Positions 1 to 53,154 of a stretch of 55,781 nucleotides of DNA are shown here, piece by piece. Both the position numbers and the translations under genes were made by a program. The notes below the pieces were generated by a model. It ran no database searches and was not told where the DNA came from. It was given only the letters and a program-made list of their open reading frames with translations. Location of the stretch: positions 1-55,781 of IMG/VR virus record IMGVR_UViG_3300037847_002600; one strand, 5' to 3'. The DNA comes from a virus. How positions within the stretch are numbered: the first letter of the stretch is position 1; each line of letters begins with the position of its first letter.

Positions 1-100
1 AAACTGGTACTAGAACTTCAGTGGGATTGAGGAGCTTGGCTTTTCGCCATGGCCTTGTAGAGTCATCCTCACCTTTGCGTGCCCACGTGCCGTAGACCTT
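1..100. repeat. Left copy of 100-bp terminal overlap
   Basis: Bases 1-100 match bases 55682-55781 at 96 of 100 positions, in direct orientation. The mismatches are at positions 32, 35, 37 and 77. The repeat lies inside the primase-polymerase gene, and joining the two copies restores one open frame. I read it as an assembly overlap of a circular or circularly permuted genome, not a functional terminal repeat, because it is short, imperfect and inside a coding region. Confidence 0.9.
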
Positions 101-694
101 CCAAATACGAGACGGATTGAATACTAGTTGGTCCACCTTGGCTCCGTCCTCGTTGCAGAGGAACGCCAGAGTGTCTAGGGCTTCGCGGATCATAGACGAC
201 GGGATGTCTTCACATCTGTACATGAGGTGGTAACCGTTGCCCGAATCGCCCATCAACGGCGCGGGCCACCCTCTTGTTGTCAAGACTTCTAGTACATTCT
301 GGCAGACACGCTCCGCTTCTGCCTTCTCCTCTGCCGTTGCGGACATACCGGCGGGGCGTTCGGGGTCAATGTCGATAAGTATCCACTTAACTTGTTGAAT
401 ATCGGCGTCATGCGCCTGTTCACCGCGTGAACATGGACCTACTTGGTTAAGACGGGCCGTTTTCGCGCTGTTCTTAATAGGATTGGGTGTAAAGTAGACT
501 CCCGACGCCCCTTTCTGCGATAATGCCCCGGCTGCTTGGGCAAATAGGTCCATATCGTCGTAATATCCGCTGAATGTGCGGTTAACGCCGTCGGCACAGG
601 GGACACGCAGGGCTCGAAGCTCTACGATCTGTCCATCTTCCACGATTGAGCGTAAGGCCGAAGCGATTTCGGCCAGATCTGTTGTATATGGCAA
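1..694 (-). CDS. Primase-polymerase / SF3 helicase, N-terminal part (continues at 55681)
   Basis: This is the N-terminal 231 residues of a replication protein of about 821 aa. The rest is at 53910-55681 across the contig junction. It carries an archaeo-eukaryotic primase (Prim-Pol) domain: metal-binding D108-x-D110 in LIDID, the SGNGYH nucleotide-binding motif at 151-156, and a later acidic residue at D188. The start is the TTG at 694, ten bases after the stop of the HTH gene and behind a strong GGGAGGGG Shine-Dalgarno; no in-frame ATG occurs before residue 48. The family synthesises primers and may extend them. It probably forms an operon with the HTH gene upstream. The domain call is strong. 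The TTG start is inferred from the ribosome site. Confidence 0.88.
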   Translation of the reverse strand, partial: MPYTTDLAEIASALRSIVEDGQIVELRALRVPCADGVNRTFSGYYDDMDLFAQAAGALSQKGASGVYFTPNPIKNSAKTARLNQVGPCSRGEQAHDADIQQVKWILIDIDPERPAGMSATAEEKAEAERVCQNVLEVLTTRGWPAPLMGDSGNGYHLMYRCEDIPSSMIREALDTLAFLCNEDGAKVDQLVFNPSRIWKVYGTWARKGEDDSTRPWRKAKLLNPTEVLVPV

Positions 695-704
695 GTTCCC
701 CTCC

Positions 705-935
705 CTAGAATAGGTTTAGCTGCTTGTGTGATTCGTCATATGGGTCGAACACCTCTTCGGGACGTAACATATGCTCGACTGCTAGGGGAGGGATACGTAG
801 TAAACCCCCCACACGGTAAGCCCTCAGCGTGCCGTTGCGTATCCAGCGTTGGATCGTGCGGATACTTACGTTCATATAAGTAGCTACTTCCCTTATACTG
901 AGCATCTGCTCGCCTAATCTGTCGTTGACTGGCAT
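705..935 (-). CDS. MerR/excisionase-type helix-turn-helix protein
   Basis: A 76-aa protein with a helix-turn-helix of the excisionase/HTH_17 type: the pattern LSIREVATYMNVS, then RTIQRWIRNGTL, then a basic RVGGLLRIP wing. Such proteins bind short DNA sites as regulators, excisionases or replication accessory factors. The ATG at 935 is chosen over one 24 bases upstream because GGGAGGT sits just before it. The gene lies next to the GCTACC repeat cluster (1010-1279) and ten bases before the primase gene, so I infer that it may bind those repeats and control replication or the leftward operon. With no integrase present, an excisionase role is unlikely. Confidence 0.85.
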   Translation of the reverse strand: MPVNDRLGEQMLSIREVATYMNVSIRTIQRWIRNGTLRAYRVGGLLRIPPLAVEHMLRPEEVFDPYDESHKQLNLF

Positions 936-1571
936 CGTACCTCCCTCAAGGTGCGACAAATGGTAACAAATGACGACACCCCCCGCAAGGAAAAGTCTGA
1001 TTTTGCCCTGCTACCGAACTGCTACCGAAGTTTGGTAGCACTACTATCTACTTAGAACCTAGCATATCCTCTGACTGCTACCTGCTACCGTTTTTTCCGG
1101 TATAGGCGCTGTATAAAAAGAGAAAAGTACGTTTACTATTTTCTATATTTAGTAGTTGTATATAGCTCTTATAAAGATGTTACCTGACTACCGGTAGCAT
1201 GGTAGCATGGTAGCATTACGTTTATATTATAGGTTTAACCTCGATACCTTACTGCTACCGAATGCTACCAAACGCTACCGAACTAGCCTCAGCACGGGCC
1301 TGTGAGTACGCGATCGCATAGTAACTACAAGATATACTCGTTTGGTTCCCCTGCGAAAACGTTTACGCACCCCCACATCTATTGGGATTAACTAAAAGTG
1401 AAAAATAGTACGTCATGTTGAGCGCACATATCCGGAACGGATCCCCCTCCCCCCAAAGCGGGGGTGCCTCGCCACGCGCACAAAAGCCCCGCGCACCGCG
1501 TGAGCGGCGCACGAGGCGAGCGGCAACGCGTGACCCGTGCGACGTGCGCCGCAACGGGTGCCGCCTTCGCG
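936..1571. other. Non-coding region upstream of HTH/primase operon
   Basis: No convincing gene is present in these 636 bases. Short open frames at 1363-1877 are Arg/Pro-rich, lack good ribosome sites and overlap one another on both strands. The region holds a direct pair of ACAAATG words ten bases apart (956-962 and 966-972) in the leader of the HTH gene, the GCTACC repeat cluster at 1010-1279, an AT-rich stretch at about 1090-1190, a small inverted repeat ATCCG-GAA-CGGAT at 1431-1443, and a C-run/G-run hairpin near 1448-1467 just past the end of the leftward gene at 1572. The last could be a weak terminator, but it has no T-run. Confidence 0.7.
1010..1279. repeat. GCTACC iteron cluster flanking an AT-rich core (candidate origin/operator)
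   Basis: There are eleven copies of GCTACC or its complement in 270 bases. Plus-strand copies start at 1010, 1021, 1077, 1084, 1254, 1264 and 1274; reverse copies (GGTAGC) start at 1034, 1193, 1201 and 1209. Many extend to GCTACCRAAC. The copies form phased groups: 11-bp spacing at the left, 8-bp spacing at 1193-1209, and 10-bp spacing at 1254-1274. A palindrome CTACCGGTAG is at 1188-1197. The groups flank an AT-rich stretch (about 1090-1190) with several TATA-like words. Iterons beside an AT-rich unwinding region are typical of replication origins, and the neighbouring HTH and primase genes fit that. An operator array is the main alternative. Confidence 0.7.
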
Positions 1572-2054
1572 CTACGAAGCGGTGGGCGGGTACACGCGCC
1601 AGTCCGGCTGCCGACGCGTACCGGCGACCAGCGCCCAGCCCTCCTCGACCGTGCAGCCGGTCGCCTTCGCGACACTACGCGCAGCAGCCACGAGCGTACG
1701 AACCTTGGCGGCCTCGACGGGGTCGAGCGGCTTGATATCCTCCCACGCGGGGAGTGCGTGCATCGGGGACGCGTAGGGCTGGTCAACGCACCCGTATGCG
1801 TTCAGGTCGAACCCTGCCTGCTCCACGTCCCATTCATGCTCTGCCGCCGCGATAAGCATCTCCCCCGCCGTGCGTAGCTGGCAGCGTGTGTGAATGCCCA
1901 CCACGAGCATAGGGCGCTTGATACCCTCTTTTACCCACGTTTGCGCCTCGTCGTCGTGCGCAATGTTCCAGTCGCGCTCCTGATACGCGAAGGTGACCTT
2001 TCGTAGCTTATCGTCTGTGTATACGTTGCTTTTTATTGTGACTTTCGTCTTCAT
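1572..2054 (-). CDS. Hypothetical phage protein (160 aa)
   Basis: I do not recognise a family. The start is the ATG at 2054 (protein begins MKTKVTIKSN) behind GGGAGAG. An upstream extension to 2282 reads through GC-rich, non-protein-like sequence and is rejected. The protein has a beta-rich N-terminus with a Tyr/Trp segment (FAYQERDWNIAHDDEAQTW) and an alpha-helical Ala-rich C-terminal half that includes an EAAKVRTLVAAARSVAKATG helix. It has no signal peptide or membrane segment. It is leftward, like the zinc-ribbon gene upstream, and is followed by the repeat-rich non-coding region. Confidence 0.65.
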   Translation of the reverse strand: MKTKVTIKSNVYTDDKLRKVTFAYQERDWNIAHDDEAQTWVKEGIKRPMLVVGIHTRCQLRTAGEMLIAAAEHEWDVEQAGFDLNAYGCVDQPYASPMHALPAWEDIKPLDPVEAAKVRTLVAAARSVAKATGCTVEEGWALVAGTRRQPDWRVYPPTAS

Positions 2055-2330
2055 TTTCTCTGCTCTCCCTGCACCCGTGCCGAGTGCGTGTGCCCCGTAT
2101 GCGCGGGGCAGCGCGTCCGACGGACGACCCGCCGGACGAAGACAGAATAGCCCGAACCCCGCCCCGTGGTAGTTTTCGTGACATTCCGTGACAACTTCGG
2201 CGATATTCGGCGTTTGCCCGTGGTCCAGCTTCGAATGTCCAGAATGTGTCAAGCTACGCGTGTGTGTACCTACGAAGCGCACGCGTCGTGTGTGCGCCTG
2301 CGCGTGCGCATGTGTGCGCGGGCGCGCCCG
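2055..2330. other. GC-rich leader with hairpins between two leftward genes
   Basis: This 276-bp gap lies between the zinc-ribbon gene and the 160-aa gene. It contains a perfect 7-bp inverted repeat TGCCCCG/CGGGGCA with a 6-base loop (2091-2110) and a second short one, GTCC-GAC-GGAC (2115-2125), close upstream of the next start codon. Alternating pyrimidine/purine GTGCGCG-type sequence fills 2275-2330. The hairpins could be a terminator/attenuator or a structured leader of the downstream gene. No T-run follows them. No gene is seen. Confidence 0.5.
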
Positions 2331-2558
2331 TTACGTATCGCATAGTCGCACGGTCTCGTGGTACGTCTCAAGCGTACGGAACCTGAACGTGCACGCGTCG
2401 CAGCTACGCGTGCGTACTACGAAGCCCGTGCCATCGGGTACGCGCTCGCACGCCCAGCGTTGCAGGTATCGCACGCCCGCGTTGCTCGCGTAATGTATTC
2501 CCGACTTCGCGGTCTCGTGCACGCGTGTGCGTAATGATTTGCATTCCGGACATTCCAT
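2331..2558 (-). CDS. NrdR-like zinc-ribbon protein
   Basis: A 75-aa protein with two Cys pairs: MECPEC at the N-terminus and SCDAC near residue 54, followed by FRTLET. The layout CxxC...CxxC plus (F/L)RT(L/I)E resembles the zinc ribbon of NrdR-type regulators. It lacks the ATP-cone domain of true NrdR, so it is ribbon only. A related protein is encoded on the opposite strand at 7598-7867. The start is taken at the ATG at 2558 (GGGGAG upstream); an ATG at 2579 with GGGGGT is also possible. A nucleic-acid-binding or regulatory role is likely, but the target is unknown. Confidence 0.75.
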   Translation of the reverse strand: MECPECKSLRTRVHETAKSGIHYASNAGVRYLQRWACERVPDGTGFVVRTRSCDACTFRFRTLETYHETVRLCDT

Positions 2559-2904
2559 GCGCGTGCGCTCCCCGTGCATACGTACCCCCGTATGGTGGGT
2601 CGGCTAGTTTGTCAAGAAAAGAGGCGAAAAAAACTTTTTTTGAATATTTTTTGGCCACCTAAACCCGCTGTTTATGCGGTTCTACAGCGATTCAACAAAA
2701 TATCCTGTTTGCAGCCACAAGCCAGCGGGGTATGTGGTCCCTGTCGGTCGTGCTTTGCGTCGCCACGGTGGCGGTGCGGGGCGCGGCTGACACGGGGCGC
2801 GTGCGCAATAGCGCGTATGCGAACCCCGTTTAATCCTTGCGCGTGTACGTTGTGTGCGTGCGCAAACCGTGGAGCGCACGAGACCCGTGCGCGTGGAGGT
2901 AGCG
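2559..2904. other. Divergent intergenic region between leftward and rightward units
   Basis: This region separates the leftward zinc-ribbon gene from the rightward early operon, so it should hold the promoters for both. It contains A- and T-tracts (about 2625-2655), an inverted repeat CGCTGT/ACAGCG (2666-2671 with 2684-2689), and a longer stem ACGGGG/CCCCGT (2792-2797 with 2824-2829) followed by TTTAAT. A weak rightward promoter-like pair is TTTGCA (2708-2713), 17 bases, TATGTG (2731-2736). No credible gene is present; the open frames here are GC-biased shadows without ribosome sites. Confidence 0.6.
2589..2655 (-). promoter_or_regulatory. Possible leftward promoter with A/T-tract upstream element
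   Basis: On the minus strand a perfect TTGACA (2610-2615) is preceded by A/T tracts (2625-2655) that could act as an UP element. A weak -10 candidate, CATACG, lies 15 bases downstream (2589-2594). It would drive the zinc-ribbon gene that starts at 2558. The -10 match is poor and the spacing short, so this is tentative. Confidence 0.35.
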
Positions 2905-3342
2905 ATGAGTCCGAAAGAGAAACTAGCGCATGCGAAACAGGCGCTCGCTTGCTTGGTCGAGGCCGACAAGCTTATGAAGATTGTTAACAAGCCCGTGGAC
3001 AAGGGCGGGCACGGGTGCAAGCACCTCACGCATGGCTGGGGTAAGGCCCCGCAGTGCACACGCCGTGTCACGTGGGCGCGACAGAACGCCGTCAAGTGGG
3101 TGGCGCAGTGCGAAGCGGATTTGGCCGCGCACCAAGAGCGCGTGGAGCGTGAGGAGCGTGAGCGCAAAGCCTTAGAGAATCGCGAGGCACAGAAACGTGT
3201 GGAGCGCGTGCAGTTCAGGCGCACACGTGACTGGAACGCCAAGCTCGGGCACATTCAGAGCGCAATCGCGGACCTTGAGCGTCAGCGCGAGTGTGTACTA
3301 AACAACATGCACGCATACGGTGTGGAGGTGCAGGGTGACTAA
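2905..3342 (+). CDS. Early coiled-coil protein, hypothetical
   Basis: First gene of the rightward early unit, 145 aa. The start is the ATG at 2905 (protein begins MSPKEKLAHAKQ) behind GGAGGT; a 17-residue extension lacks a ribosome site. The central part, about residues 70-110, is a charged heptad-like helix rich in Glu and Arg (AHQERVEREERERKALENRE), which suggests a coiled coil. It has two Cys in a KHLTHGWGKAPQCTRR segment. It overlaps the next small gene by eight bases. The family is unknown; its position suggests an immediate-early role. Confidence 0.75.
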   Translation: MSPKEKLAHAKQALACLVEADKLMKIVNKPVDKGGHGCKHLTHGWGKAPQCTRRVTWARQNAVKWVAQCEADLAAHQERVEREERERKALENREAQKRVERVQFRRTRDWNAKLGHIQSAIADLERQRECVLNNMHAYGVEVQGD

Positions 3343-3493
3343 CGCCGAGTTCGCCCGTACAAACGGGCAGTTCCGCGCAGCGTGTGAGCGTGCAGGCATC
3401 GAGCCTACACGCCGACAGGCTAGCAAGTTTCGAAACAAGACAGGCGCAGCGTGGGCTGCGCGTAAGGGAGGGTCGAATGTTGAATCCGAATGA
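3335..3493 (+). CDS. Small conserved-type early phage protein (52 aa)
   Basis: A short GTG-initiated gene overlapping the previous gene's stop; GGAGGTGCAG lies upstream. The peptide begins VTNAEFARTNGQFRAACE and continues through GIEPTRRQASKFRNKTG. This TN-x-EF-x-RTN ... ACE-x-AGIEPTxRQASK pattern resembles small proteins of unknown function I recall from other phages, which supports a real gene despite its length. It is basic and probably helical. The next gene starts inside its end at 3477. Confidence 0.65.
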   Translation: MTNAEFARTNGQFRAACERAGIEPTRRQASKFRNKTGAAWAARKGGSNVESE

Positions 3494-3692
3494 GTTGTGG
3501 TTGTGGCACACGCAGTCGCCTTCGGGCGAGCGTCTGCCTGTGTTCCGTGCGGCGACGCGTGACGATGCGGTCGAGTACTGCGAGCGCGTAGGTTGGACCG
3601 AGTTGCAGCACTTGCAGGGGTTCTGCCCTCGTGTGTACGAGGTTGACCGAGCGACGGGCGACGTTGTGCGTAGGGAGGTGTCCGATGCTTAG
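3477..3692 (+). CDS. Hypothetical early protein (71 aa)
   Basis: Starts at the ATG at 3477 (MLNPNELWLWHT) behind AAGGGAGGG. The longer frame from 3384 is rejected because its extension overlaps the upstream small gene and lacks a ribosome site. The protein looks like a compact alpha/beta domain: a beta strand (ELWLWHT), a helix (TRDDAVEYCERVGW) and a closing strand (PRVYEVD). This resembles small phage domains that begin with a sequence-entry strand followed by a D-A-x-x-Y helix. I do not assign a function. Confidence 0.7.
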   Translation: MLNPNELWLWHTQSPSGERLPVFRAATRDDAVEYCERVGWTELQHLQGFCPRVYEVDRATGDVVRREVSDA

Positions 3693-3942
3693 AGACCTCG
3701 TACGGAAACACGTGGACGAAGACCTCGTATGGGTGATCGTGATTACATGCGTGCCCATGCTGATAGGCTGTGTGGCTATCAAGCACGGAACACGCAGCGT
3801 CGCGCAACAACATGCGTACACGTGGGAGACATGCGCTCCCCTGTGCGTGATAGACGGACTGCAATACGAGCCTAGGCGGTTCGAGTCTGGTGAATGCTGG
3901 TGCGATATGCAGCGCGTTCGTATGGGGGTGACCGATGGGTGA
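3685..3942 (+). CDS. Small single-pass membrane protein with Cys-rich tail
   Basis: An 85-aa protein starting at the ATG at 3685 (MLRDLVRKHVDED), which overlaps the upstream stop and has AGGAGGT before it. Residues about 14-33 (LVWVIVITCVPMLIGCVAI) form one hydrophobic helix. The C-terminal part has five Cys (ETCAPLCVIDG ... GECWCDM), which may bind metal or form disulfides if exported. Its place in a train of small early genes suggests host interaction. Topology and function are unknown. Confidence 0.65.
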   Translation: MLRDLVRKHVDEDLVWVIVITCVPMLIGCVAIKHGTRSVAQQHAYTWETCAPLCVIDGLQYEPRRFESGECWCDMQRVRMGVTDG

Positions 3943-4033
3943 GCTACTGTTCACAGGTTGGGACCTGTTCTTTTACACGTGCGCCATGTTCGCGCTCTAC
4001 GTCGGGTTCATGCTCGCAGGGGGTGACGCATGA
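3935..4033 (+). CDS. Tiny membrane peptide (32 aa)
   Basis: An ATG at 3935 overlaps the previous gene's end and opens a 32-residue frame. It is mostly hydrophobic and aromatic (WDLFFYTCAMFALYVGFML), consistent with one transmembrane helix. Its stop overlaps the next start as ATGA at 4030-4033, the arrangement seen across this operon, which argues for translation. No family is recognised. Confidence 0.55.
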   Translation: MGELLFTGWDLFFYTCAMFALYVGFMLAGGDA

Positions 4034-12906: not shown

Positions 12907-15381
12907 ATGACGACTAATCAAGTACGTCCACAAGATTGCGCCGACTGCGAGAACTGTCCGCTGAGGGTTCACTGGATGCGCGAAGGGTGCTGGCAACCCG
13001 TACCAATCCAGCATGCTACTGACCCCGACAACAGCATCGTGTTCGTGGGTGACGGTCCGACGAAGACCGCGTTCGCTGAAGGGCGAGCGTTCAGCGGCCA
13101 AGAAGGTATCTACTTACTTAACGAGGTCAAAGAGCTAGGCCACCAACGCAAAGACTTCGGCTGGGCGTACACCGTAGCGTGCCGCTGGCCCAACGATGAC
13201 CCGAGCGCGTACCTAGCCAAGCTACGGGCGAGCAACCGCAAGCGCGTACGCCAAGGCCAAGACCCTATTCAGTCGCCGGTCACCGCCTGCGCACCGTACC
13301 GCAAGTGGGCGCTCGAAGACTACCCTACAGTCGTCCCTATGGGCTCGCTGTCTACCAAGGTAGCCTTGGGTACCAACCCGTCACTAGAAGCTGTCAGAGG
13401 CGGTCCTACACGCGTTGGTGATGTCAACGTACTACCTACTTACTCTCCGTCTATGATGGGCAACAAGAAGGGCCACCTCAAGGAGGTGCTCACCTCGGAC
13501 ATCAGCAAGGCTATACGTCACCATGAGGACAAGCTGAGATGGACAGACCCCAAAGTTATCTATGTTCCTACAAGAGAGCAGGCGCTAGACTTCTTCTCAC
13601 GACACAAGGTACTGGCATACGACGTTGAGACCGATGGCGTGGACTGCCTCACAGCAGGGCTGAGGTGCGTAGGTATCGGAGCCGAGGACGAAGTACTAAT
13701 CATACCGTTTGATCTCATCGGTGGCGGCTCGTACATGAGCCCTGAAGATCGAGCGTGGTTCACAGAGCTACTGGCCAAGGTGTTTACAGACAAGACCATT
13801 ACAAAGGTGGGACACAACGCAGGGTACTTCGACCGCCTTGTCGTCGAGCAGCACTTCGGCGTGACGCCTGAGCCCTTGGTGGACACGTTGCTTCTACACA
13901 AGCTGGCTGCGTCTGAGCACAGGCATAGGCTAGGCTTCATCGGTTCGGTGATGACTGACGTGCCCGCATGGAAAGCTGACCACACAGGTGTACTCGCAAG
14001 GACAGACCAAGAGCTGTATGAGTACTGCGCTACGGACGTTGCGGTGACCGCACGTATCCGACGACCTCTGGAGATAACGGCTGAGGACCGAGAGCAGGAC
14101 CACCTGTACAAGACCGACGCCAAACTACAAGACATCTGCGCAGGTATGCGACGCATGGGTATCCGCATCGACGAGGGCAGACGACTTGCACATCACGCCA
14201 AGCAGACCGATGAGGTGCACAGGTGGCGCAGCGTCATCGAGGGCTTCAGCCCCGGTATGAACCCTAACTCGAATGCACAGGTACGTGACTTGCTGTTCGG
14301 TAGGTGGAAGCTACCTGTCCTAGAGTTCACCGACACAGGTGACGAGAGCATCAACGCTATGGTTCTGCGCTCTCTCGTTGGACACCCGTTGGTAGAGGAC
14401 AAGCACCGTAAGTTTATCAACGCACTTAGGTTCTATCGCAGAGCGCACAAGCTACTGTCTACCTATCTAAACAAGCTAGCCCCCGGAGCTGGGTTTGTCC
14501 GTGACGGCTATGTCTATCCTGATTATAACTCGCACGGCACAGTGACCGGACGATTGTCATCTAGCAATCCTAACTTTCAGAACATCCCGTTTGACTTGCG
14601 GGACATGTTCATCCCACCACCGGGCTGTGTGTTCGTTGGGGCGGACTACGATCAACTGGAGCTTCGCTTCGCCGCTGCCTTGGCAGGCGAGCAGCACTAC
14701 CTAGATGCGTTCGAGAAGAAGGAGATAGACCCGCACAACCTTACGGGTGACCTGATGTTTGGGGAGAAGTTCTGGGCAGCGCAAGGGGCCCCGGACACCA
14801 AGATGGGTAAGGGTAAAGGCGCGTTCAAACAACTACGCAACCTAGCTAAGACCATCTGTTTCGCCTCGCTGTACGGGGCGTCGGCCCCTAAGGTGTACGA
14901 GATCATCACTCGTGCCGAGGACGAGCAGGGCAACATGCTGTACGCAAACTACAGCCTCAAACAAATCAGGTTGCTACATAAGAAATGGCTGGCGAACGCA
15001 CCCGAGTTTAAGAACTGGTGGAAGAGAACACTGGACAGTTGCAGGGCCACTGGATATATCGAGGAGGTCGTCTTAGGGAGGCGGCGCTACTTCGCTGACG
15101 AGGACTACAACGCCATCCTCAACTTCGGCGTACAGGCAGGCGGCTTCGCTGTCGTTGGCCTGTCGATGATTGAGTTGGTAGAGCGGCACCTGCCGTTCGA
15201 CTTCGACAGGAAGCATGGCTTGGTAAATCAGTTACATGATGCGGTGCTGTTCGCAGTGCCGGAGGACAAAGCAGAGGAGACGAGAGACGTGGTAACAGAA
15301 GTAATGACAAGAAGTGTGCCGGGGTTACCGGTGACGTTTAGTGCAGAGGCAGAGATTGGAACAAGTTGGAGGGAAGTATGA
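12907..15381 (+). CDS. UDG-like / 3'-5' exonuclease / family A DNA polymerase fusion
   Basis: An 824-aa replicative polymerase. Residues about 10-195 resemble the family 4 uracil-DNA glycosylase fold: a Cys cluster at C11, C14, C17 and C28, VGDGPTKTAFAEGRAFSG, TACAPYR and PTYSPS. The exonuclease follows: D239-x-E241, N304 with D309, and Y373-x3-D377. The polymerase has motif A GADYDQLELR (catalytic D580), the O-helix R644-x3-K648-x3-F652-x3-YG, and motif C QLHDAV (D778). Two oddities: the glycosylase motif B has Ser where His is usual, and motif C reads HDA rather than HDE. The ATG follows AGGGAGGGACAC and the stop overlaps the next start (ATGA). The polymerase call is certain; glycosylase activity is doubtful. 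Confidence 0.95.
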   Translation: MTTNQVRPQDCADCENCPLRVHWMREGCWQPVPIQHATDPDNSIVFVGDGPTKTAFAEGRAFSGQEGIYLLNEVKELGHQRKDFGWAYTVACRWPNDDPSAYLAKLRASNRKRVRQGQDPIQSPVTACAPYRKWALEDYPTVVPMGSLSTKVALGTNPSLEAVRGGPTRVGDVNVLPTYSPSMMGNKKGHLKEVLTSDISKAIRHHEDKLRWTDPKVIYVPTREQALDFFSRHKVLAYDVETDGVDCLTAGLRCVGIGAEDEVLIIPFDLIGGGSYMSPEDRAWFTELLAKVFTDKTITKVGHNAGYFDRLVVEQHFGVTPEPLVDTLLLHKLAASEHRHRLGFIGSVMTDVPAWKADHTGVLARTDQELYEYCATDVAVTARIRRPLEITAEDREQDHLYKTDAKLQDICAGMRRMGIRIDEGRRLAHHAKQTDEVHRWRSVIEGFSPGMNPNSNAQVRDLLFGRWKLPVLEFTDTGDESINAMVLRSLVGHPLVEDKHRKFINALRFYRRAHKLLSTYLNKLAPGAGFVRDGYVYPDYNSHGTVTGRLSSSNPNFQNIPFDLRDMFIPPPGCVFVGADYDQLELRFAAALAGEQHYLDAFEKKEIDPHNLTGDLMFGEKFWAAQGAPDTKMGKGKGAFKQLRNLAKTICFASLYGASAPKVYEIITRAEDEQGNMLYANYSLKQIRLLHKKWLANAPEFKNWWKRTLDSCRATGYIEEVVLGRRRYFADEDYNAILNFGVQAGGFAVVGLSMIELVERHLPFDFDRKHGLVNQLHDAVLFAVPEDKAEETRDVVTEVMTRSVPGLPVTFSAEAEIGTSWREV

Positions 15382-16897: not shown

Positions 16898-17260
16898 CCC
16901 ATACAGCAAAGCGATGTCAACTGGATTCGCTGTTGCAGATGGTGTCCCTGTATTTACTTGGGTGGTTGTGACGATGTACGAGAAGTACCCAATCTCGGTT
17001 CCCGCAGGCATGATGATGTGCTGCTTCGTAGACCCCTCGACCTTCCAGATTTGAAAAGGTGCGTTACTAGCATGCGCAGGCGAAGCCGCGTTGTAGATCT
17101 TAAGAAACGTCACCGCCGAGTTAGCTGTGTTGTCTATCTCTAGCTGGTACAACGTGACCTTGGTGTCTGCCAAAGGGTTGTTGACTGCGGTAGCGTTCGA
17201 GACCGTAGCTGTGTAAACGAAGCCGCCGATGGGACCTAAGAGGGGTTGAATCTGCGCCAT
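16883..17260 (-). CDS. Putative virion/fibre-associated beta protein (125 aa)
   Basis: The last gene of the leftward late unit. It is a beta-rich protein with an LKIYN segment (about 53-57) and a PAGTEIGYF turn (about 85), typical of small phage structural or fibre-tip domains. It is similar in plan to the next gene upstream (17269-17646), which has LKLYD and a PNGLTFNNGLAF turn in matching places. It ends in a convergent overlap with the lysin gene. There is no direct evidence for its location in the virion; the call rests on neighbours and beta-rich composition. Confidence 0.6.
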   Translation of the reverse strand: MAQIQPLLGPIGGFVYTATVSNATAVNNPLADTKVTLYQLEIDNTANSAVTFLKIYNAASPAHASNAPFQIWKVEGSTKQHIIMPAGTEIGYFSYIVTTTQVNTGTPSATANPVDIALLYGSAPV

Positions 17261-17268
17261 AGTTTACC

Positions 17269-17646
17269 TCACTTAAAGACCATCTGGATGTCCAGATCGG
17301 CGGATGGACTACCGCCCGCCGCTGTACCGCCAGCGTTGCTTGCGTTGAAGGCTAGTCCGTTGTTGAACGTCAGTCCGTTGGGGAAGTGATAGATCTCCTT
17401 AGAGCCTGACTCTGCGGAAAAGATGTAGTCTGGAGCATCCGTACCTACAGTTACTTCTGCCTTAGTGTCGTACAGCTTCAGGTAGTCGAACACGCTTGTA
17501 CCTGACCCGTCATGGCCGATGTACAAGAAGTATAGCTTGCCGCTTTTACCGAAGACATCGTTGCGAGCCGTTGTGTCGCTCACGTTGTCTTCTTTCATCT
17601 GACTGTAGTCTATGCGAGTAGACTGTTTATTAACTGTTGTCGCCAT
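17269..17646 (-). CDS. Putative virion/fibre-associated beta protein (125 aa), paralog of 16883-17260
   Basis: Same length as its downstream neighbour, with matching elements: a beta strand KLYFLYIG, LKLYD, a short acidic insert, and a PNGLTFNNGLAFNASN turn ending in GGTAAGGSPSADLDIQ. The C-terminal part is Gly/Ala/Asn-rich, as in fibre or decoration proteins. It lies directly downstream of the 59-aa gene. The relationship to 16883-17260 is judged by pattern, not by alignment score. Confidence 0.6.
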   Translation of the reverse strand: MATTVNKQSTRIDYSQMKEDNVSDTTARNDVFGKSGKLYFLYIGHDGSGTSVFDYLKLYDTKAEVTVGTDAPDYIFSAESGSKEIYHFPNGLTFNNGLAFNASNAGGTAAGGSPSADLDIQMVFK

Positions 17647-21044: not shown

Positions 21045-24000
21045 CTAATCCTTTATCAAGGGCGCGGACGCTTGACGTTCCATCTTCTTAAGTTCTAGTT
21101 TAACTGCTTCCTTAGCTGTCTTCATATCATTTATTTGGTTATTCTCACCGTTGTAGAAGACAGTTCGTCCGATGTTGATGGTGTTACCTATATTATACAG
21201 CCGCATCTTTCTTGGGTCATCGTCAGCGAGCGCCTTGATTTCTGGACTGGTCAGCTCAGGAAACGCAATAGCCAGTGCTGTGCGGCTCCGGAGAAGCTCT
21301 GTTCGTAGGATAGAGAACAGCAGCTCGTTCATAATAGGCGGACCGGACAGATTAAGGCGTTTGACCCTTGGATCTTTCGAGTCTGGGTTGACTTCTACGA
21401 GGAAGTCTAGCCCCATGCTGCGAAGTGTCTGGATGGCGGCGAGGTCGCCGGGACGCAGCACGCGACCGTAAGGTGACTTGGGTCGCCGAGCATCGAAGAA
21501 GATAGCTTTGGCCATCTCACCATAGATGGGGTTGGCAATCGAATCGGCTAGCTCCTCGATCAGCCCTGTGGTGGCTGCTTTAGTGTTCACCGAGTACACG
21601 CTGTCCATACCCGGCATACCTGCCATCAAGATCGCACTGGTGTATGCGGCTATGTTTGCAGTAGAATGTGCGAACTCGACCGTTGTAGCCTTCGGCATAC
21701 CAAACGCGACGTGTTGTTTCCCGAAGCCTGCGGTCTCGATCATCCGACGATACTGGCGTGGGGTGACGGTCATCGAGCTTATCAACGGGTAATCAGCAAA
21801 GAAGCTCGATAGGTTACGTTCACCCACGGTGTCGCGCTGTTGTTGGGGGGTCAGATCTTCGTACGGGTCTACATACCCCGCGTACGGCGACTGGAACCTA
21901 CTAATCATCTGCATACGTTGGACTTTGGTCTGGCCCCGAGCGTACTTAGCAAGGTAGGCTTTAAGAGATTCGTCGGACGAGGCTTCAAACAACATGCGAT
22001 ATTGCTGGGCGAACCCGTTCTTTACAAGTGTATAGAAGAACGCGAAGTCTCCAAGCATCGCACGTTCCAGCCTTCCGACAGAGAAGGACCAGTCATACAT
22101 CGAGTCTAGAAGCATACGCCTCGCCACATCACGAGGCAGCTCTCGGTTGATGCGCAGGTGTGCGTATAGTAACAATCGTTGCCGTCGTGTAACTTCCCTT
22201 ATCTTTAGTTCAAGGATACGCTGATACCCACCGACGGTATCATAGACGTTGAAGAACGCATTTGGGTTGTTACGAATCTGCCGACGGGCCTCAGCTTCCA
22301 GAATCTCGCCGAAGTCGGCCCCACGCAGGAACTCGCCTACGCCGTCTTCCATGGCTTCAGCATAGAACTGCCGACCTGTGACGATCTGTTTGTCCTTACC
22401 GACGTACAGTGTTTCGTCCGACATACGCAGGATTCGATCGATCGCGCCGTTGAACGTCGCAGCGGTAGCCGTAGGCAGACCAATCTTACCCGGAGGTAGT
22501 TGCCGGGACATGGCATAGTAGCTGTTCTGTAACGACTTGCCCGCAAATGGGAACGAACCCAGAGCCCCTTGCATCGAGAGCGGTAGCGCCTCTAGGGGAC
22601 CAACCGCGTCTGCCATCTGTGCGTACTCGCCGAAGTGCATGTTTGAGAAGTAGGCGACACGTGGGTTCAGCAAGCCGTACAGGATGTGGCGTTTGAAGAA
22701 GCTAATGAATCCGTTAAAGACACGTATCGCCGTGGCTCCGACCTTGTACAGCGCAGGGTTCAGCATGGCTTCACTCATCTGCTCGCCGAACTCCTTAGAC
22801 AGTTTGTCCAAAGAGTTGTGAAAGCTGACCATGCTACCACGTGGAGTCATGAGTACGTTGCCTGCTTCGTCTACGCTGGAGATCACCATACGCTGATACA
22901 TGTCACGTACGACACCGAAGAGAGGCCGCATCTTCTCCCGGCCCATGGTGGTCATCATACGAGAACCGAGCAACGAGAACCCGTCAAGTGCGTCGAGCAT
23001 AGAGACACGAGTGTCCCGCAAGAACACATCTTCGAGCTTCACCGGGGGCTCGTCCGTGTTGAAGTGTGCCATGCCGTCTTCGATCTTGTTGATCCTGCGC
23101 GAGGGGCGACCAAGCACACCACTAAGCTTGTCCTCAACGAGAACAGACCGCACTTGCTCCCGCTTTTTCCCGGTGCGGAGCCCCGTGCGGCTCGCCTTTG
23201 CAGACTTGCGGACCAGCGCGTTCCAAGCGTCCATCTCCTGTCGGAGGATCACGTAGGAACCTACAGTCGGGGTCACGGGGATGTAGTCCGTAGATGCCTC
23301 GGTGCCGCGTCCCTGCATGCGGTTCATCGACCGACCAACAGTTTCGTTAAACCTTGCGCCAAAGATGCTGTTCCACTTCGCTGCGTACCTTGTCTGCAAA
23401 GCACCTAGGACAATAGCTTTTGAGAACTTAACGTTTGCAAACGCGGTCTCGTCTATCTTGATGTCTTCGACCTTCCGAAGAGCGGTAACGATAGCATTAC
23501 GAAGCGCCGCCATAGCGGTCTCGCCATCAGCTTGCAACAACGTATCTGCGTTCTTTAGTAAGATGCTGTCCACCAAACTTTGAATACGGGGATACAAATC
23601 ACTGTAGAAGTCTGCTGCTCCAACGATCGAGTCGTCCCGGATGAGGGCCGTAATCGCAGGACCTAGCGAATCGTCAGGCTTGAACAACGCACGGTCCGCC
23701 CCTTTTGCCGCCTTGCGCATCCGGGCGTCGTAGATAAGACCCTCGACCATGGTAGACGCTAGCGACTTGTCGAAGCCCGCGAGTGCGGTCATGGTGATTT
23801 TGGCTTTCGGGGTAAGAGGGAAGTTGTACTGGTACGGTAGATCTTCAAGCCTACCCACTGACGTTAGGATTAGGTTGATCGCTTCTTGCTTTGCCTCAAC
23901 ACCTCGGACGTTGTTTACCGCTAGGTTCATAGTATCTATGACATCCTGCGCCACACGGGCCATACCTTTGGCGGCTTCGTCTGCGTCCCGGCGGATCTGA

Positions 24001-27000
24001 ATATCGAGATAACGTACGTTGGTACGAAACACTGGGAAGCTTTCGAGTATATTATCTAGTTGGATTGTGCTTCGTATCGCCCACGCCAAGGGCTTCTGCC
24101 ACAGCAGCGCCTGCTGTTTGTGTGTCAGATTCACGTAACCTAAGGGTTCGCGGAACAGATTGACTAGGCCTTTGGCGGTCAGCACCGTATCGACGAACTC
24201 CTCATCGGTCATGTCGGCGATGCGAGGTGCCTCGTCGGCTATCGCTCGCATGGAGGCTACACGTACAGGCTCTGCCAGTAGGTCTTTGCGCATGCGCGGT
24301 CCGACCTGCTCGAACAGCTCTTCGTACTTAGAAGGTGGCAGTGTCAGTAGGTCTGTGCTGCCCTTGGTGAGGTCGCGAAGATTGTTAATGTACGAGATGT
24401 ACACGTTACGCGCCAAGGTATCGTCGCTCAGTTGTTCGCCGATTACGCGTTCGGTCTCTGCCTTATCGTACTTCTTTTTAAGTGCGTCTAGCTTCTTATC
24501 CAGTTCGGACGCAGCCTTTTGAACTTGAGCTTCGACACGAGCCAATCCGACAGCAGTCTCTCCGGGCCTGATCTTAGCCTTCTTGCCTAGGCCCCGGACG
24601 CCGATCATCTCTTTGTTGATGCGACGTACGAGGTTGGTTTGCAGCAAGCCAAGTTCGTCTTGAATCTGCTGCCTAGCGAGGCGTAGCCCTTGGACCTTCT
24701 TAACTTGCAGCTTCAACGCGTCCGCGATGGGCGACGACTTGGGCATGCTCGCCTTGATCAGTCCGTCGAGGCGACGCATAGTCAAAGATTTTGCAGTAAC
24801 GCCGCCGACTTTACCCGTCTTGTCCATGTTGCGTAGAGCGAAAGTCTTGATGTCCGTAAGGCCGGTTTTGACCCGGAGGGCGTCGAAGATCTGCGTAGGC
24901 GTCAGAGGTGCATCGTCCGACAGCTTCATGCCGCTGACCATCTTACGCATACCACTGAGTTCGCGGGTGCCTTGTTTCAGTAGACCGCGCTGTGTTTTCA
25001 GCAGTGCTTCTAGGGCGTCGGCCTCTTGCCGTGCTCCGGTTAAGATCTGCTGCAACGCCGTCAATCGCTGACGTTGTGCGTTTTGTTTGTTGCCCGCTTT
25101 GTTAATCTTGTCTAGCTTCTTCTGTGCAGAAACAAACTGTTCACGAGCTTTGGTCGCTAGGTCTTTGTAAAAGCGCAGCGCCTCTTCAACACCGGCACCG
25201 GAGGTCAAAGGGACGTTCAGTGAACTATCGGACGTAGCTTTGAACTGGGCCAAGTAGTCATATGCGTGCACGCCGCCCGTCTTGCTCTTCTTAAACTCAG
25301 CACGCAAGACCTTATTGAACTCGATCATTTGATCGGTATCAAGATCCTCTACGTTACCTACTTTCTCGGTGGCTAGCTCGATCGCCCGGTTCAGCAACGG
25401 CACGTCACTTGCGGTCATCTGTTGATACTCGGCACCTAGTGCCCGCTTCGCTCCGCGTACGGCAGGGCGTGCGCCCCTAGCAGCAACACCTATACCCATC
25501 AGAGCGTCAGGTGACAGCGTATACGCAATCAGCCCGCCGATCATACCGGCTGCGCGTCCGAGCGCCGGGTTGTTCTTACCGTACTCACCTAAAAGCGGGT
25601 TGATGAATACGTCACCAACCTCGTTCATAAAACGGGCTCCTAGCTTATCGCCTACTGCGATGCGGCGAATGGCCCGATCGGAGTCCATTAGCTCAAGGAA
25701 GTTACGAGCTACACCACCGGGCCTACCATAAAAGCTCCCGCCGGATTCGGCATAGTCGTCGTTTGCTAGTGTAAAGGTTGCAGCAATAGGCTCGAATGTA
25801 CTCAGACGGACCAGCGCATCGAGGAAGGTAGTCGGAGCATACTCACCCAGCAAAGGAGCAAAGAAGTCGCCTTCTCTGACGTAGCCCCGGTTGAAATCTT
25901 CCGACATCAAGATGCCTGCTGACGACCGAGGCAACGTAACCGCACCAGCAAGCTTGATATAGTCACTGATGAAGTCGTCAAACAACAACTTATCTGCGCC
26001 CAAAGTCACTACGTTGGCTGCAATCTGGAGCGCCTTAACGACATTGGCGCGGAAACCAACACCTTCGGTATAGTCTTTGGCTGCGCCGTACGGGTCTCGA
26101 AACGCGACCAGCGTGTTTCGCGACTTCAAAGGGGCAACAAGCTGACGGGCCTCGGCCTTGGCTTCGGCGGACAGCTTCTCTACTACTTCTCGTGGAGGAA
26201 TAGTGCCCTCGTACCCGGCGTCCCGTTTCTTCTTACGATACGCAGCGACGCGAATCCCGTTCTCGTACACAGCCATGTCCGCATAAAACCGACCAAACCT
26301 GTCTTGGTTCATCGGCACGTACAGCTCACTAGGCTTTCTGTCCTTCATTGAGTAGAACAGATTGGTCTTGTGCCTCGCTACATCTAGCGGGTCACCGAGG
26401 GCCTCTTGAATATCTGTCGTAGGAATGTCTGTGGCGTAGCCCTGTTGGACGCGCTGCATGACTGAGGGTGGTAAGTCGAAGTTGTAGATGAAACGCTCCA
26501 GAGCGTTACCAGAGGCGTCAGCAACTTGCTTGTTGGTTTGCTTATCGAACCGAGGCGCGGCGTCGAGGACTTGGGCCCCGGCTTCGGTGTCGAAGAAGAC
26601 AGGACGAATAGTGTCTCGGACCTTCTGGTCTTGCGCTCGCTGGGCAAACAGTTCCATGGCACGCTTGCGAAGCTCGGTCTGATGCTTGATGTCAGCACCG
26701 ATGTTCTTGACCATCTGCTCTGGAGACTCGTACTTCTTGTGTAGGTTCAGCATGGCCCATGTCTGCAACGCAGTCGCCGCATCCTCATCGACACGGTTGA
26801 TCTTCATCTGGTCGTACAAGAAGTTATCCGGCGTATAACCTGTAGTTTCACTGGCGCTCTCGACTAGCCCCTGCATGAGGGCCGCTCGGGCCTCTTCGGT
26901 ATCCTCGCGGTTACGGCGCTGAAGCAAGCGGCTGAGTGCGGCCTGTTGGTCATCCACCATACTGTACATGGGCAGGCCTTGGCCCCGGAAAGTGTCGAAC

Positions 27001-27242
27001 AAGGTTCGCTTGGCGTTAGCCTCTTTGCGTAGATCTTTCTGTGTCTGGACCGACGGAATCTCTTCGGCGATCTTCTTGATCTGCTCATCCAGCTCGGGCA
27101 TCGACTGGGGCGCGGTCTCCAACGGGTCCATACTGGACGCTAGGGGGTTGCCCTTGCGAAGCTCCTCACGTACGAGACTAGCCGCCTTGTAGGCGTCCTC
27201 GTAGATCTTCATGAAGTCCGCGTTGTTACTGGGCTGCGCCAT
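21045..27242 (-). CDS. Giant internal virion protein (2065 aa), gp16-like position
   Basis: One of two giant genes. It follows the lysozyme-domain gene and a Gly-rich gp14-like gene, the order of T7 internal core proteins, so I infer a DNA-ejection or internal core protein. It is largely helical, with a coiled-coil-rich middle (about residues 690-960) and hydrophobic segments near residues 560-590 (AAGMIGGLIAYTLS). About 1500-1560 contains KRHILYGLLNPRVAYFSNMHF, reminiscent of large polyvalent phage proteins. No polymerase motif was found. It starts at the ATG at 27242, overlapping the upstream gene by 17 bases, with GAGGG upstream. Size and context are clear; domain assignments are not. Confidence 0.75.
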   Translation of the reverse strand: MAQPSNNADFMKIYEDAYKAASLVREELRKGNPLASSMDPLETAPQSMPELDEQIKKIAEEIPSVQTQKDLRKEANAKRTLFDTFRGQGLPMYSMVDDQQAALSRLLQRRNREDTEEARAALMQGLVESASETTGYTPDNFLYDQMKINRVDEDAATALQTWAMLNLHKKYESPEQMVKNIGADIKHQTELRKRAMELFAQRAQDQKVRDTIRPVFFDTEAGAQVLDAAPRFDKQTNKQVADASGNALERFIYNFDLPPSVMQRVQQGYATDIPTTDIQEALGDPLDVARHKTNLFYSMKDRKPSELYVPMNQDRFGRFYADMAVYENGIRVAAYRKKKRDAGYEGTIPPREVVEKLSAEAKAEARQLVAPLKSRNTLVAFRDPYGAAKDYTEGVGFRANVVKALQIAANVVTLGADKLLFDDFISDYIKLAGAVTLPRSSAGILMSEDFNRGYVREGDFFAPLLGEYAPTTFLDALVRLSTFEPIAATFTLANDDYAESGGSFYGRPGGVARNFLELMDSDRAIRRIAVGDKLGARFMNEVGDVFINPLLGEYGKNNPALGRAAGMIGGLIAYTLSPDALMGIGVAARGARPAVRGAKRALGAEYQQMTASDVPLLNRAIELATEKVGNVEDLDTDQMIEFNKVLRAEFKKSKTGGVHAYDYLAQFKATSDSSLNVPLTSGAGVEEALRFYKDLATKAREQFVSAQKKLDKINKAGNKQNAQRQRLTALQQILTGARQEADALEALLKTQRGLLKQGTRELSGMRKMVSGMKLSDDAPLTPTQIFDALRVKTGLTDIKTFALRNMDKTGKVGGVTAKSLTMRRLDGLIKASMPKSSPIADALKLQVKKVQGLRLARQQIQDELGLLQTNLVRRINKEMIGVRGLGKKAKIRPGETAVGLARVEAQVQKAASELDKKLDALKKKYDKAETERVIGEQLSDDTLARNVYISYINNLRDLTKGSTDLLTLPPSKYEELFEQVGPRMRKDLLAEPVRVASMRAIADEAPRIADMTDEEFVDTVLTAKGLVNLFREPLGYVNLTHKQQALLWQKPLAWAIRSTIQLDNILESFPVFRTNVRYLDIQIRRDADEAAKGMARVAQDVIDTMNLAVNNVRGVEAKQEAINLILTSVGRLEDLPYQYNFPLTPKAKITMTALAGFDKSLASTMVEGLIYDARMRKAAKGADRALFKPDDSLGPAITALIRDDSIVGAADFYSDLYPRIQSLVDSILLKNADTLLQADGETAMAALRNAIVTALRKVEDIKIDETAFANVKFSKAIVLGALQTRYAAKWNSIFGARFNETVGRSMNRMQGRGTEASTDYIPVTPTVGSYVILRQEMDAWNALVRKSAKASRTGLRTGKKREQVRSVLVEDKLSGVLGRPSRRINKIEDGMAHFNTDEPPVKLEDVFLRDTRVSMLDALDGFSLLGSRMMTTMGREKMRPLFGVVRDMYQRMVISSVDEAGNVLMTPRGSMVSFHNSLDKLSKEFGEQMSEAMLNPALYKVGATAIRVFNGFISFFKRHILYGLLNPRVAYFSNMHFGEYAQMADAVGPLEALPLSMQGALGSFPFAGKSLQNSYYAMSRQLPPGKIGLPTATAATFNGAIDRILRMSDETLYVGKDKQIVTGRQFYAEAMEDGVGEFLRGADFGEILEAEARRQIRNNPNAFFNVYDTVGGYQRILELKIREVTRRQRLLLYAHLRINRELPRDVARRMLLDSMYDWSFSVGRLERAMLGDFAFFYTLVKNGFAQQYRMLFEASSDESLKAYLAKYARGQTKVQRMQMISRFQSPYAGYVDPYEDLTPQQQRDTVGERNLSSFFADYPLISSMTVTPRQYRRMIETAGFGKQHVAFGMPKATTVEFAHSTANIAAYTSAILMAGMPGMDSVYSVNTKAATTGLIEELADSIANPIYGEMAKAIFFDARRPKSPYGRVLRPGDLAAIQTLRSMGLDFLVEVNPDSKDPRVKRLNLSGPPIMNELLFSILRTELLRSRTALAIAFPELTSPEIKALADDDPRKMRLYNIGNTINIGRTVFYNGENNQINDMKTAKEAVKLELKKMERQASAPLIKD

Positions 27243-46187: not shown

Positions 46188-46480
46188 TACTTCATACTCT
46201 TCTTGCCCTTGCACTTCCAACGCTTGCGCGACAGGTTGTTGGGCGTGTTAGGGTCATTCTGTTTCTCTTTCGAAAGGCGGCTCTTGATACCTGCCGAGCG
46301 AGCGCAGTAGGAGTCGCCCTTAGACGTACCGGGCCTGACACGAGGTCCGCCACCTTTCGCCTGCCCTGCTTGGCCGTAAGACACCTTCTTACCAGACGCG
46401 GTGCGCTTGACACGTGCCTTGCCCTTACGGGGCTTAAGTGCGTTACGTGCGGCCTTACGTCGTTTATCTTTAAGGGACAT
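46187..46480 (-). CDS. Small basic phage protein with GDSYCARSAG motif (97 aa)
   Basis: A highly basic protein (KDKRRKAARNALKPRKGKAR at the start) with the motif GDSYCARSAGIKSRL, then NTPNNLSRKRWKCKG. This Cys/Arg motif resembles small phage-associated domains of the DUF6321 type. It is encoded between the 1950-aa giant and the terminase. Nucleic-acid binding is likely from its charge; a packaging or internal role is inferred. Confidence 0.7.
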   Translation of the reverse strand: MSLKDKRRKAARNALKPRKGKARVKRTASGKKVSYGQAGQAKGGGPRVRPGTSKGDSYCARSAGIKSRLSKEKQNDPNTPNNLSRKRWKCKGKKSMK

Positions 46481-52739: not shown

Positions 52740-53154
52740 TCTTGGCCTCCAGTACTACAGGTTCGGACTGCTCAATCTCTTCGGCGGTGAAGTAGTCACC
52801 ACGGAGCTGTTTGGTCTCTCGTTTCACTTGAACAAGTGCGGTAACTATATCCGTATATGCATCTTGCGGACTTCCTTCAACCGAGTTCTTAGTTGCTAGG
52901 ATAGTAAAGTTGAGTTCATGCCATGCCCGTAGCTCCTGTGCGATAACAGGTGTGATGCGCCCCTCGACCAGTGCGGCCATGATTTTACTGCTGAAACCTA
53001 CCAGATCGTCATACGTATCAATCTGAGCTTGGGCTACAAAGTCTGCGACCTCCTTACGTTTGTCCTTCGGGACCAACATCAACCAAGATGCGTAGTCCCC
53101 ACCAGCACTTGCGGGAGGTCTACGTGCGGGACTTGAGTTCTTCTTCTTTGACAT
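52732..53154 (-). CDS. Hypothetical protein, terminase small subunit candidate (140 aa)
   Basis: A helical protein with LVPKDKRKEVADFVAQAQIDTYDDL (about 27-51, split here) and ITPVIAQELRAWHELNF. Its length, helical content and place upstream of the terminase genes fit a small terminase or DNA-recognition subunit, but the giant gene intervenes and no clear HTH is visible, so this is only a candidate. It overlaps the preceding gene by 35 bases; GAGG precedes the start. Confidence 0.55.
   Translation of the reverse strand: MSKKKNSSPARRPPASAGGDYASWLMLVPKDKRKEVADFVAQAQIDTYDDLVGFSSKIMAALVEGRITPVIAQELRAWHELNFTILATKNSVEGSPQDAYTDIVTALVQVKRETKQLRGDYFTAEEIEQSEPVVLEAKNG

What the first reader, a model, noticed from the sequence alone, without database searches (positions are those of the whole stretch)
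1010..1279. Eleven GCTACC repeats around an AT-rich core: candidate new replication origin
Chance would place a given 6-mer (both strands) roughly once per 2 kb; here it occurs eleven times in 270 bases. The copies are phased in groups (11, 8 and 10 bp), in both orientations, flanking about 100 bp of AT-rich sequence, and carry the longer consensus GCTACCRAAC. The cluster sits directly upstream of an HTH protein and a primase-helicase, as iteron origins usually do. It is not explained by any gene.
Basis: partly seen in the sequence, partly recalled or inferred. Interest (0 to 1): 0.85.

Follow-up and report, generated by a model that had tools for sequence, protein, structure and literature searches.

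The report
Phage replication origin with short repeats
A cluster of eleven copies of a six-letter DNA word around an AT-rich stretch is very probably the place where this uncultivated phage starts copying its DNA; all seventeen relatives that could be checked keep the same layout but mostly spell the word differently, which lets one ask how an origin and the enzyme that reads it change together.

Summary
In detail: 11 exact GCTACC words lie at 1010-1279, against about 0.15 expected there, and no shuffled genome exceeded 8 copies of any word. The window is a complete, circularly overlapping phage genome. The array lies upstream of a two-gene operon: a 76-aa HTH protein and an archaeo-eukaryotic-type primase fused to a D5/SF3 helicase. 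All 17 non-redundant relatives whose upstream DNA is held carry the same kind of array: about 6 words, an AT-rich core usually of 80-105 bp, about 6 words. The words differ (GTAGACA, GTAGTT, TGTGGT, GGTTACA and others) while GT and the spacing persist. More distant D5 primase-helicases carry arrays of other words just downstream of the gene (20 of 35 loci against 2 of 350 control blocks), including phage A2, at its annotated rep_origin, and NrS-1. In NrS-1 the published primase start sequence TTTGGTTA occurs once in the genome, inside that array. Best reading: an iteron origin read by the helicase's C-terminal RFX-like winged helix, whose exposed strands then serve the fused primase; SaPI and SCCmec origins are closest. 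The HTH as reader is the main rival. Nothing was shown by experiment. New variant of a known kind.

The parts
1010..1039 (.). outer group of words next to the operon: GCTACC at 1010 and 1021 (+) and 1034 (-)
1077..1089 (.). inner tandem pair of words (1077, 1084), pitch 7
   Evidence: the same pair with pitch 8-9 in all 17 relatives compared
1090..1104 (-). conserved element TATACCGGAAAAAAC next to the inner pair (TTATAATAGGGAAAAAA in many relatives); candidate promoter -10 or duplex-melting element
1090..1192 (.). AT-rich core, 69% AT, candidate unwinding element
   Evidence: relatives' cores mostly 81-107 bp
1193..1214 (.). inner triplet of words at 1193, 1201, 1209 (-), pitch 8
1254..1279 (.). 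distal outer group of words at 1254, 1264, 1274 (+), pitch 10
705..935 (-). 76-aa HTH_17 / excisionase-BldC-like winged-HTH protein, first gene of the operon
1..694 (-). N-terminal archaeo-eukaryotic primase (PrimPol) domain of the primase-helicase (motifs IDID, SGNGYH, RIWKVYGT)
   Evidence: fold of the orthologue L026
53910..55781 (-). rest of the same gene across the contig ends: D5_N, SF3/AAA+ helicase (TIGR01613), C-terminal winged helix
53970..54212 (-). C-terminal RFX/Pox_D5-like winged helix (residues 722-802 of 821; wing 783-802 at 53970-54029), proposed reader of the words

Best explanation
The array is the phage's replication origin. Proposed working: the primase-helicase assembles as hexamers on the two half-arrays (about six words on each side), holding the duplex words with its C-terminal RFX-like winged helix; the hexamers melt the AT-rich core between them and load on the two strands; the fused primase then starts DNA synthesis on the exposed strands, possibly using the word-bearing strand (GTTYGGTAGC) as its preferred start template, and the phage family-A polymerase elongates. 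The HTH protein encoded first in the operon would be an accessory or autoregulator acting at the same region. Shown here: the array, its position, its conserved layout, the drift of its word, the domain make-up of the enzyme, and equivalent arrays beside distant homologues. Inferred: binding, hexamer loading, melting, priming and the role of the HTH.
For: Array far above chance. All 17 non-redundant relatives with upstream DNA have an array in the same place; inner pair pitch 8-9, core usually 81-107 bp, about 40-43 bp from the inner pair to an inverted single word in most. Distant D5 primase-helicases without this HTH have arrays just downstream of the gene in 20 of 35 loci against 2 of 350 control blocks. 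Phage A2's annotated rep_origin has the same build, ACGGGAG words around an AT-rich core. NrS-1 has GGTTACACTTT words downstream of its polymerase gene, and the only TTTGGTTA in its deposited genome, the start sequence of NrS-1 PrimPol (PMC8718748), is there. The enzyme belongs to the phage/plasmid P4-primase helicase family, the family of SaPI5 Rep (7ola; that 7ola is SaPI5 Rep is from memory). Its orthologue's C-terminal domain matches RFX winged helices at Z 10.2-10.8; RFX puts its wing in the major groove (PMC2533330), and the wing is the segment whose divergence best follows the word (partial Mantel 0.42, p about 0.001). For SCCmec Cch2 the isolated C-terminal domain was shown to bind the iterons (PMC7581432). 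No second comparable array in the window.
Against: No replication or binding data. The covariation is correlative, from 18 related sequences, and the HTH is also significant if the two loci with divergent HTHs are dropped. The array is upstream, not downstream as in SaPI and SCCmec. Recognition helix 3 of the winged helix is nearly invariant across several words. The helicase core of the predicted model has low confidence, so hexamer formation rests on homology. About 40% of the distant loci show no array by this simple count. L228 carries the same word downstream of an unrelated DnaG/VapE-type protein, so the word alone does not identify its reader.
Confidence: 0.68

Rival explanations
1. Still an origin, but the words are bound by the 76-aa HTH protein, which polymerises head-to-tail on the direct repeats, bends the DNA and recruits or loads the primase-helicase.
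For: The HTH gene is adjacent; its predicted fold is closest to mycobacteriophage Xis and to BldC; BldC binds 9-bp direct repeats head-to-tail (PMC5859096); word pitch is 7-11 bp; HTH divergence tracks the word if L057 and L058 are left out. L006 and L020, both GGTTACA, share the helix start VSERT.
Against: L057-L059 have differently built HTHs yet the same kind of array and the GTAG core; over all 18 loci the HTH shows no significant tracking (partial r 0.18, p 0.09), nor in the thinned set; distant homologues have arrays without this HTH nearby.
Confidence: 0.22
2. The array is an operator region: words bind a regulator of the leftward replication operon (and perhaps of the rightward early genes), with no origin function.
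For: It lies directly upstream of the operon; a TATA-like element flanks the inner pair in most relatives.
Against: About twelve sites spread over 270-380 bp in two half-arrays around a long AT-rich core is unusual for an operator; distant homologues have the array downstream of the gene; phage A2's annotated rep_origin has the same build.
Confidence: 0.07
3. The words are excisionase (Xis) sites of a prophage attachment region.
For: The HTH belongs to TIGR01764 'excise' and its fold is closest to Pukovnik Xis.
Against: No integrase was found among the window proteins scanned (not every ORF was scanned); such arrays accompany primase-helicases, and the layout is two-sided around an AT-rich core.
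Confidence: 0.02
4. Chance clustering of a six-letter word.
For: None found.
Against: and conservation of the layout in relatives.
Confidence: 0.002

Closest known systems
SaPI origins with Rep, especially SaPI5 Rep (primase plus D5-type helicase)
   Same: Several short iterons; a self-loading helicase of the same family (D5_N / Primase_Cterm) whose C-terminal domain recognises them (as summarised in PMC7581432); AT-rich region between sets of repeats (memory).
   Different: The SaPI origin lies directly downstream of rep; no HTH gene in between; words differ; a satellite, not a phage.
SCCmec Cch2 origin (AAGTG iterons), PMC7581432
   Same: D5/Primase_Cterm helicase; isolated C-terminal domain binds the iterons; the partner primase can start at the iterons.
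   Different: Three iterons, downstream of the helicase; the primase is a separate A-family-polymerase-based pair, not a fused archaeo-eukaryotic primase.
Phage NrS-1 PrimPol-helicase and the region 17061-17378 of AB746912
   Same: Primase fused to a ring helicase; adjacent array of GGTTACACTTT, containing the same GGTTACA as the window's relatives L006 and L020; the enzyme's start sequence TTTGGTTA spans two tandem words.
   Different: Array downstream; word GGTTACA rather than GGTAGCA; by sequence profile the window clade's primase domain does not match NrS-1's.
Lactobacillus phage A2 replication module
   Same: Primase-helicase gene followed by an annotated rep_origin with 7-8 short words around an AT-rich core.
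   Different: Array downstream, word ACGGGAG.
pRN1 orf56/orf904 (PMC4234260, abstract)
   Same: Gene of a small DNA-binding repressor followed by a PrimPol-helicase gene; a short upstream region is required for replication.
   Different: No iteron array of this kind in the abstract; the repressor is of another fold (memory).

Membership tests
SaPI/SCCmec-type iteron origin with D5-family initiator helicase | Initiator has D5_N / phage-plasmid primase (P4) helicase domains | tested here: met
   PF08706 2.9e-32; TIGR01613 296 bits, cut-off 109
SaPI/SCCmec-type iteron origin with D5-family initiator helicase | C-terminal winged helix able to bind double-stranded DNA | tested here: met
   Fold only, by prediction of orthologue L026, residues 723-804: RFX5 Z 10.8 over 80 residues, rmsd 2.5; Pox_D5 match in the window protein. 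Binding itself was not testable
SaPI/SCCmec-type iteron origin with D5-family initiator helicase | Several short iterons in sets on both sides of an AT-rich region | tested here: met
SaPI/SCCmec-type iteron origin with D5-family initiator helicase | Array directly downstream of the helicase gene (usual, perhaps not defining) | tested here: not met
   Array is upstream of the HTH-primase operon; the next ORF (53120-53917) overlaps the 3' end of the helicase gene
SaPI/SCCmec-type iteron origin with D5-family initiator helicase | C-terminal domain determines iteron specificity | tested here: inconclusive
   Wing-word correlation partial r 0.42, p about 0.001, n=18; correlative only
SaPI/SCCmec-type iteron origin with D5-family initiator helicase | Array needed for replication | not testable with these tools
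   needs an experiment
NrS-1-type PrimPol with sequence-specific start site | Archaeo-eukaryotic primase catalytic fold and motifs | tested here: met
   Motifs IDID, SGNGYH; fold Z about 14 to PrimPols and archaeal primases over residues 1-246 of L026
NrS-1-type PrimPol with sequence-specific start site | Primase domain homologous to NrS-1 PrimPol in particular | tested here: inconclusive
   Profile A5 has no match to it; the weak match came with phi105 in the profile
NrS-1-type PrimPol with sequence-specific start site | Start sequence TTTGGTTA in the array | tested here: not met
   The window's two TTTGGTTA lie elsewhere (21134, 36414); the array has TTYGGTAG six times, with one more at 14296
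BldC/Xis head-to-tail direct-repeat binder (the 76-aa HTH) | BldC/Xis-like winged-HTH fold | tested here: met
   4j2n TM(target) 0.85, 6amk 0.80, E about 0.002-0.005; TIGR01764
BldC/Xis head-to-tail direct-repeat binder (the 76-aa HTH) | Binding sites as direct repeats of constant 9-bp pitch | tested here: inconclusive
   Pitch 7, 8, 10 and 11, with inversions
Classical RepA/pi-type plasmid iteron origin | WH1-WH2 Rep initiator | not tested
   None of the operon proteins matched such a family, but no dedicated search was made

The most novel reading that the evidence does not exclude
One word has two readers in one protein: as duplex it is the binding site of the hexameric helicase, and as single strand it is the start template of the fused primase. 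Origin choice and primer choice would then be locked together, and the word can drift across the whole array (mixed arrays as in L007 and L009 being intermediates) only as the wing and the primase follow. The published NrS-1 start sequence TTTGGTTA would then be the junction of two adjoining helicase sites.
Probability: 0.25. Interest if true: 0.72.

Novelty: new variant of a known kind. Interest (0 to 1): 0.5.

Why it matters
It gives an origin layout for a clade of uncultivated phages that has no near relative in the phage collection, and a natural series in which the layout stays fixed while the repeated word changes. That makes it directly testable how an initiator and its many binding sites change specificity together. 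It also offers an explanation for an open point about the NrS-1 polymerase: why it starts at one 8-base sequence, and where in the genome.

Tried and rejected
Nucleotide search of 1-4000 in named phages: no match. Rfam and tRNA scans: nothing. Promoter/terminator scan: one terminator-like hairpin (1486-1517), no convincing promoter at the array. GC skew: minimum near 2 kb, but confounded by divergent transcription. Single-strand DNA folding of the array is stronger than shuffles (z -5.3); this follows from inverted words and was not taken as evidence of a structure. The 15-mer ATAATAGGGAAAAAA is not specific to these arrays (119 contigs; 8 with both array and primase among those examined). Word search GGTAGCAN...: two other contigs, one an array beside a DnaG/VapE-type protein (L228), one a hairpin (L229). 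A Mantel test with fixed word orientation gave a similar order with weaker values; dropping L057 and L058 makes the HTH about as good as the wing, so the choice of reader stays open. Zhu 2017 (NrS-1) could not be read. Chen 2020 (PMC7102993) counts two copies of the 8-mer in NrS-1; the deposited record read here has one; unexplained.

Full report
What is there. The contig's ends overlap by 100 bases at 96% identity, so this is a complete genome cut inside one gene. Read across the junction, that gene encodes an 821-residue protein: an archaeo-eukaryotic primase domain, a middle region with Cys/His motifs, D5_N, an SF3/AAA+ helicase of the phage/plasmid P4-primase family and a C-terminal winged helix. 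It is preceded, with a gap of about ten bases, by a 76-residue HTH protein; the array lies directly upstream of that gene. Leftward and rightward transcription diverge in this region, so the skew minimum near 2 kb says little by itself.

Relatives. Searches with the enzyme brought in close relatives, about 58-67% identical over the whole protein. Every one whose upstream DNA is present has an array in the same place, mostly with its own word: GTAGACA (many), GTAGAA (L013), CGTAGTA (L012), TTGTAGT (L026), TTGTGGT (L027), GGTTACA (L006, L020), TGTTACA (L018), TGTAGACGA mixed with GTAACTG (L007, L009), GTAGTAA (L057), GTAGTCA (L058, L059). Aligned, all share GT. The layout hardly changes: usually 5-8 words, a core of about 81-107 bp in most, then usually 4-7 words; an inner pair of pitch 7-9 beside the core; then in most cases 40-43 bp to an inverted word followed by words of pitch 9-12. 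Fixed geometry with a drifting word is what one expects of binding sites for an oligomer. The total of about 12 would fit two hexamers, but the count varies (8-14) and this is only suggestive.

More distant enzymes. Homologues at 30-40% identity have no such HTH nearby by BLAST, and many have a dense array of other words just downstream of the helicase gene. Scored uniformly, 20 of 35 loci have six or more copies of a 7-mer in the stretch after the gene, against 2 of 350 control blocks from the same loci. Three named phages tie this to function. Lactobacillus phage A2 carries a deposited rep_origin feature at precisely that place, with ACGGGAG words around an AT-rich core. Bacillus phage phi105 has AGTAACA words around an AT-rich core. 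In NrS-1, GGTTACACTTT occurs eleven times (seven exact, four with one mismatch) in 318 bp after the polymerase gene. NrS-1 polymerase starts synthesis without a primer at 5'-TTTGGTTA-3' (PMC8718748), and the only TTTGGTTA in the deposited genome lies where two of these words adjoin. Published work suggested that the site might be the origin (PMC7102993); the passages that could be read here do not mention the array.

Which protein reads the word? [quoted passage not shown] A structure prediction of the orthologue L026 gives a confident primase domain (Z about 14 to primases and PrimPols) and a C-terminal winged helix that matches RFX transcription factors (Z 10.2-10.8 over 74-80 residues); the helicase core is poorly predicted. 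RFX domains put the wing, not helix 3, in the major groove (PMC2533330). In this clade helix 3 is nearly constant across several words while the wing varies, and wing divergence follows word divergence best (partial Mantel 0.42, p about 0.001, over all 18 loci; 0.37 in a thinned set). The HTH does not follow it significantly in those two sets, but does when the two loci with divergent HTHs are removed. The HTH has the fold of Xis and BldC, and BldC binds direct repeats (PMC5859096), so it stays the main rival or a plausible partner. From memory, the RFX half-site (GTTACC) resembles some of these words; this was not tested.

Verdict. An iteron-type replication origin, very likely; read by the helicase's winged helix, probably; used as a primer-start template, possibly. 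It works like SaPI and SCCmec origins and belongs to the same broad kind, but differs in lying upstream, behind an added HTH gene, with a long two-sided layout and a drifting word. No binding or replication was shown.

Noticed in passing
L230:8131-8532 (AB746912 17055-17456): NrS-1's annotated hypothetical gene NRS1_29 overlaps the GGTTACACTTT array and may not be a real gene.
   Followed up: partly
L007:3790-4190 and L009:100-400: Arrays mixing two words (GTAGACGA and GTAACTG), possibly caught while the word is changing.
   Followed up: partly
L012:550-860: A second array of about ten CTTGACA words lies upstream of the GCGTAGTA array.
   Followed up: no
L228:5310-5496: Seven GGTAGC words (AAGGTAGCAA in most) in a two-sided layout directly downstream of an 803-aa protein that looks like a DnaG-type primase fused to a VapE-like helicase (judged by eye), with no tblastn match to the window enzyme: same word, different initiator.
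   Followed up: partly
window 12907-15378 (+): Family-A DNA polymerase with an N-terminal uracil-DNA-glycosylase-superfamily domain and a 3'-5' exonuclease.
   Followed up: no
window 21045-27242 (-) and 46480-52332 (-): Two giant ORFs (2065 and 1950 aa) with no convincing PHROG match.
   Followed up: no
window 1486-1517 (-): Strong terminator-like hairpin (14 pairs, 11 GC) between the array and the next gene.
   Followed up: no
window 2200-2600: Alternating purine-pyrimidine DNA rich in GCACGC/GTGCG (7 copies in 300 bp), near the divergent region.
   Followed up: no
L229:720-790: Three tandem GGTAGCAT words inside a long inverted repeat between two genes; not an origin-like layout.
   Followed up: no
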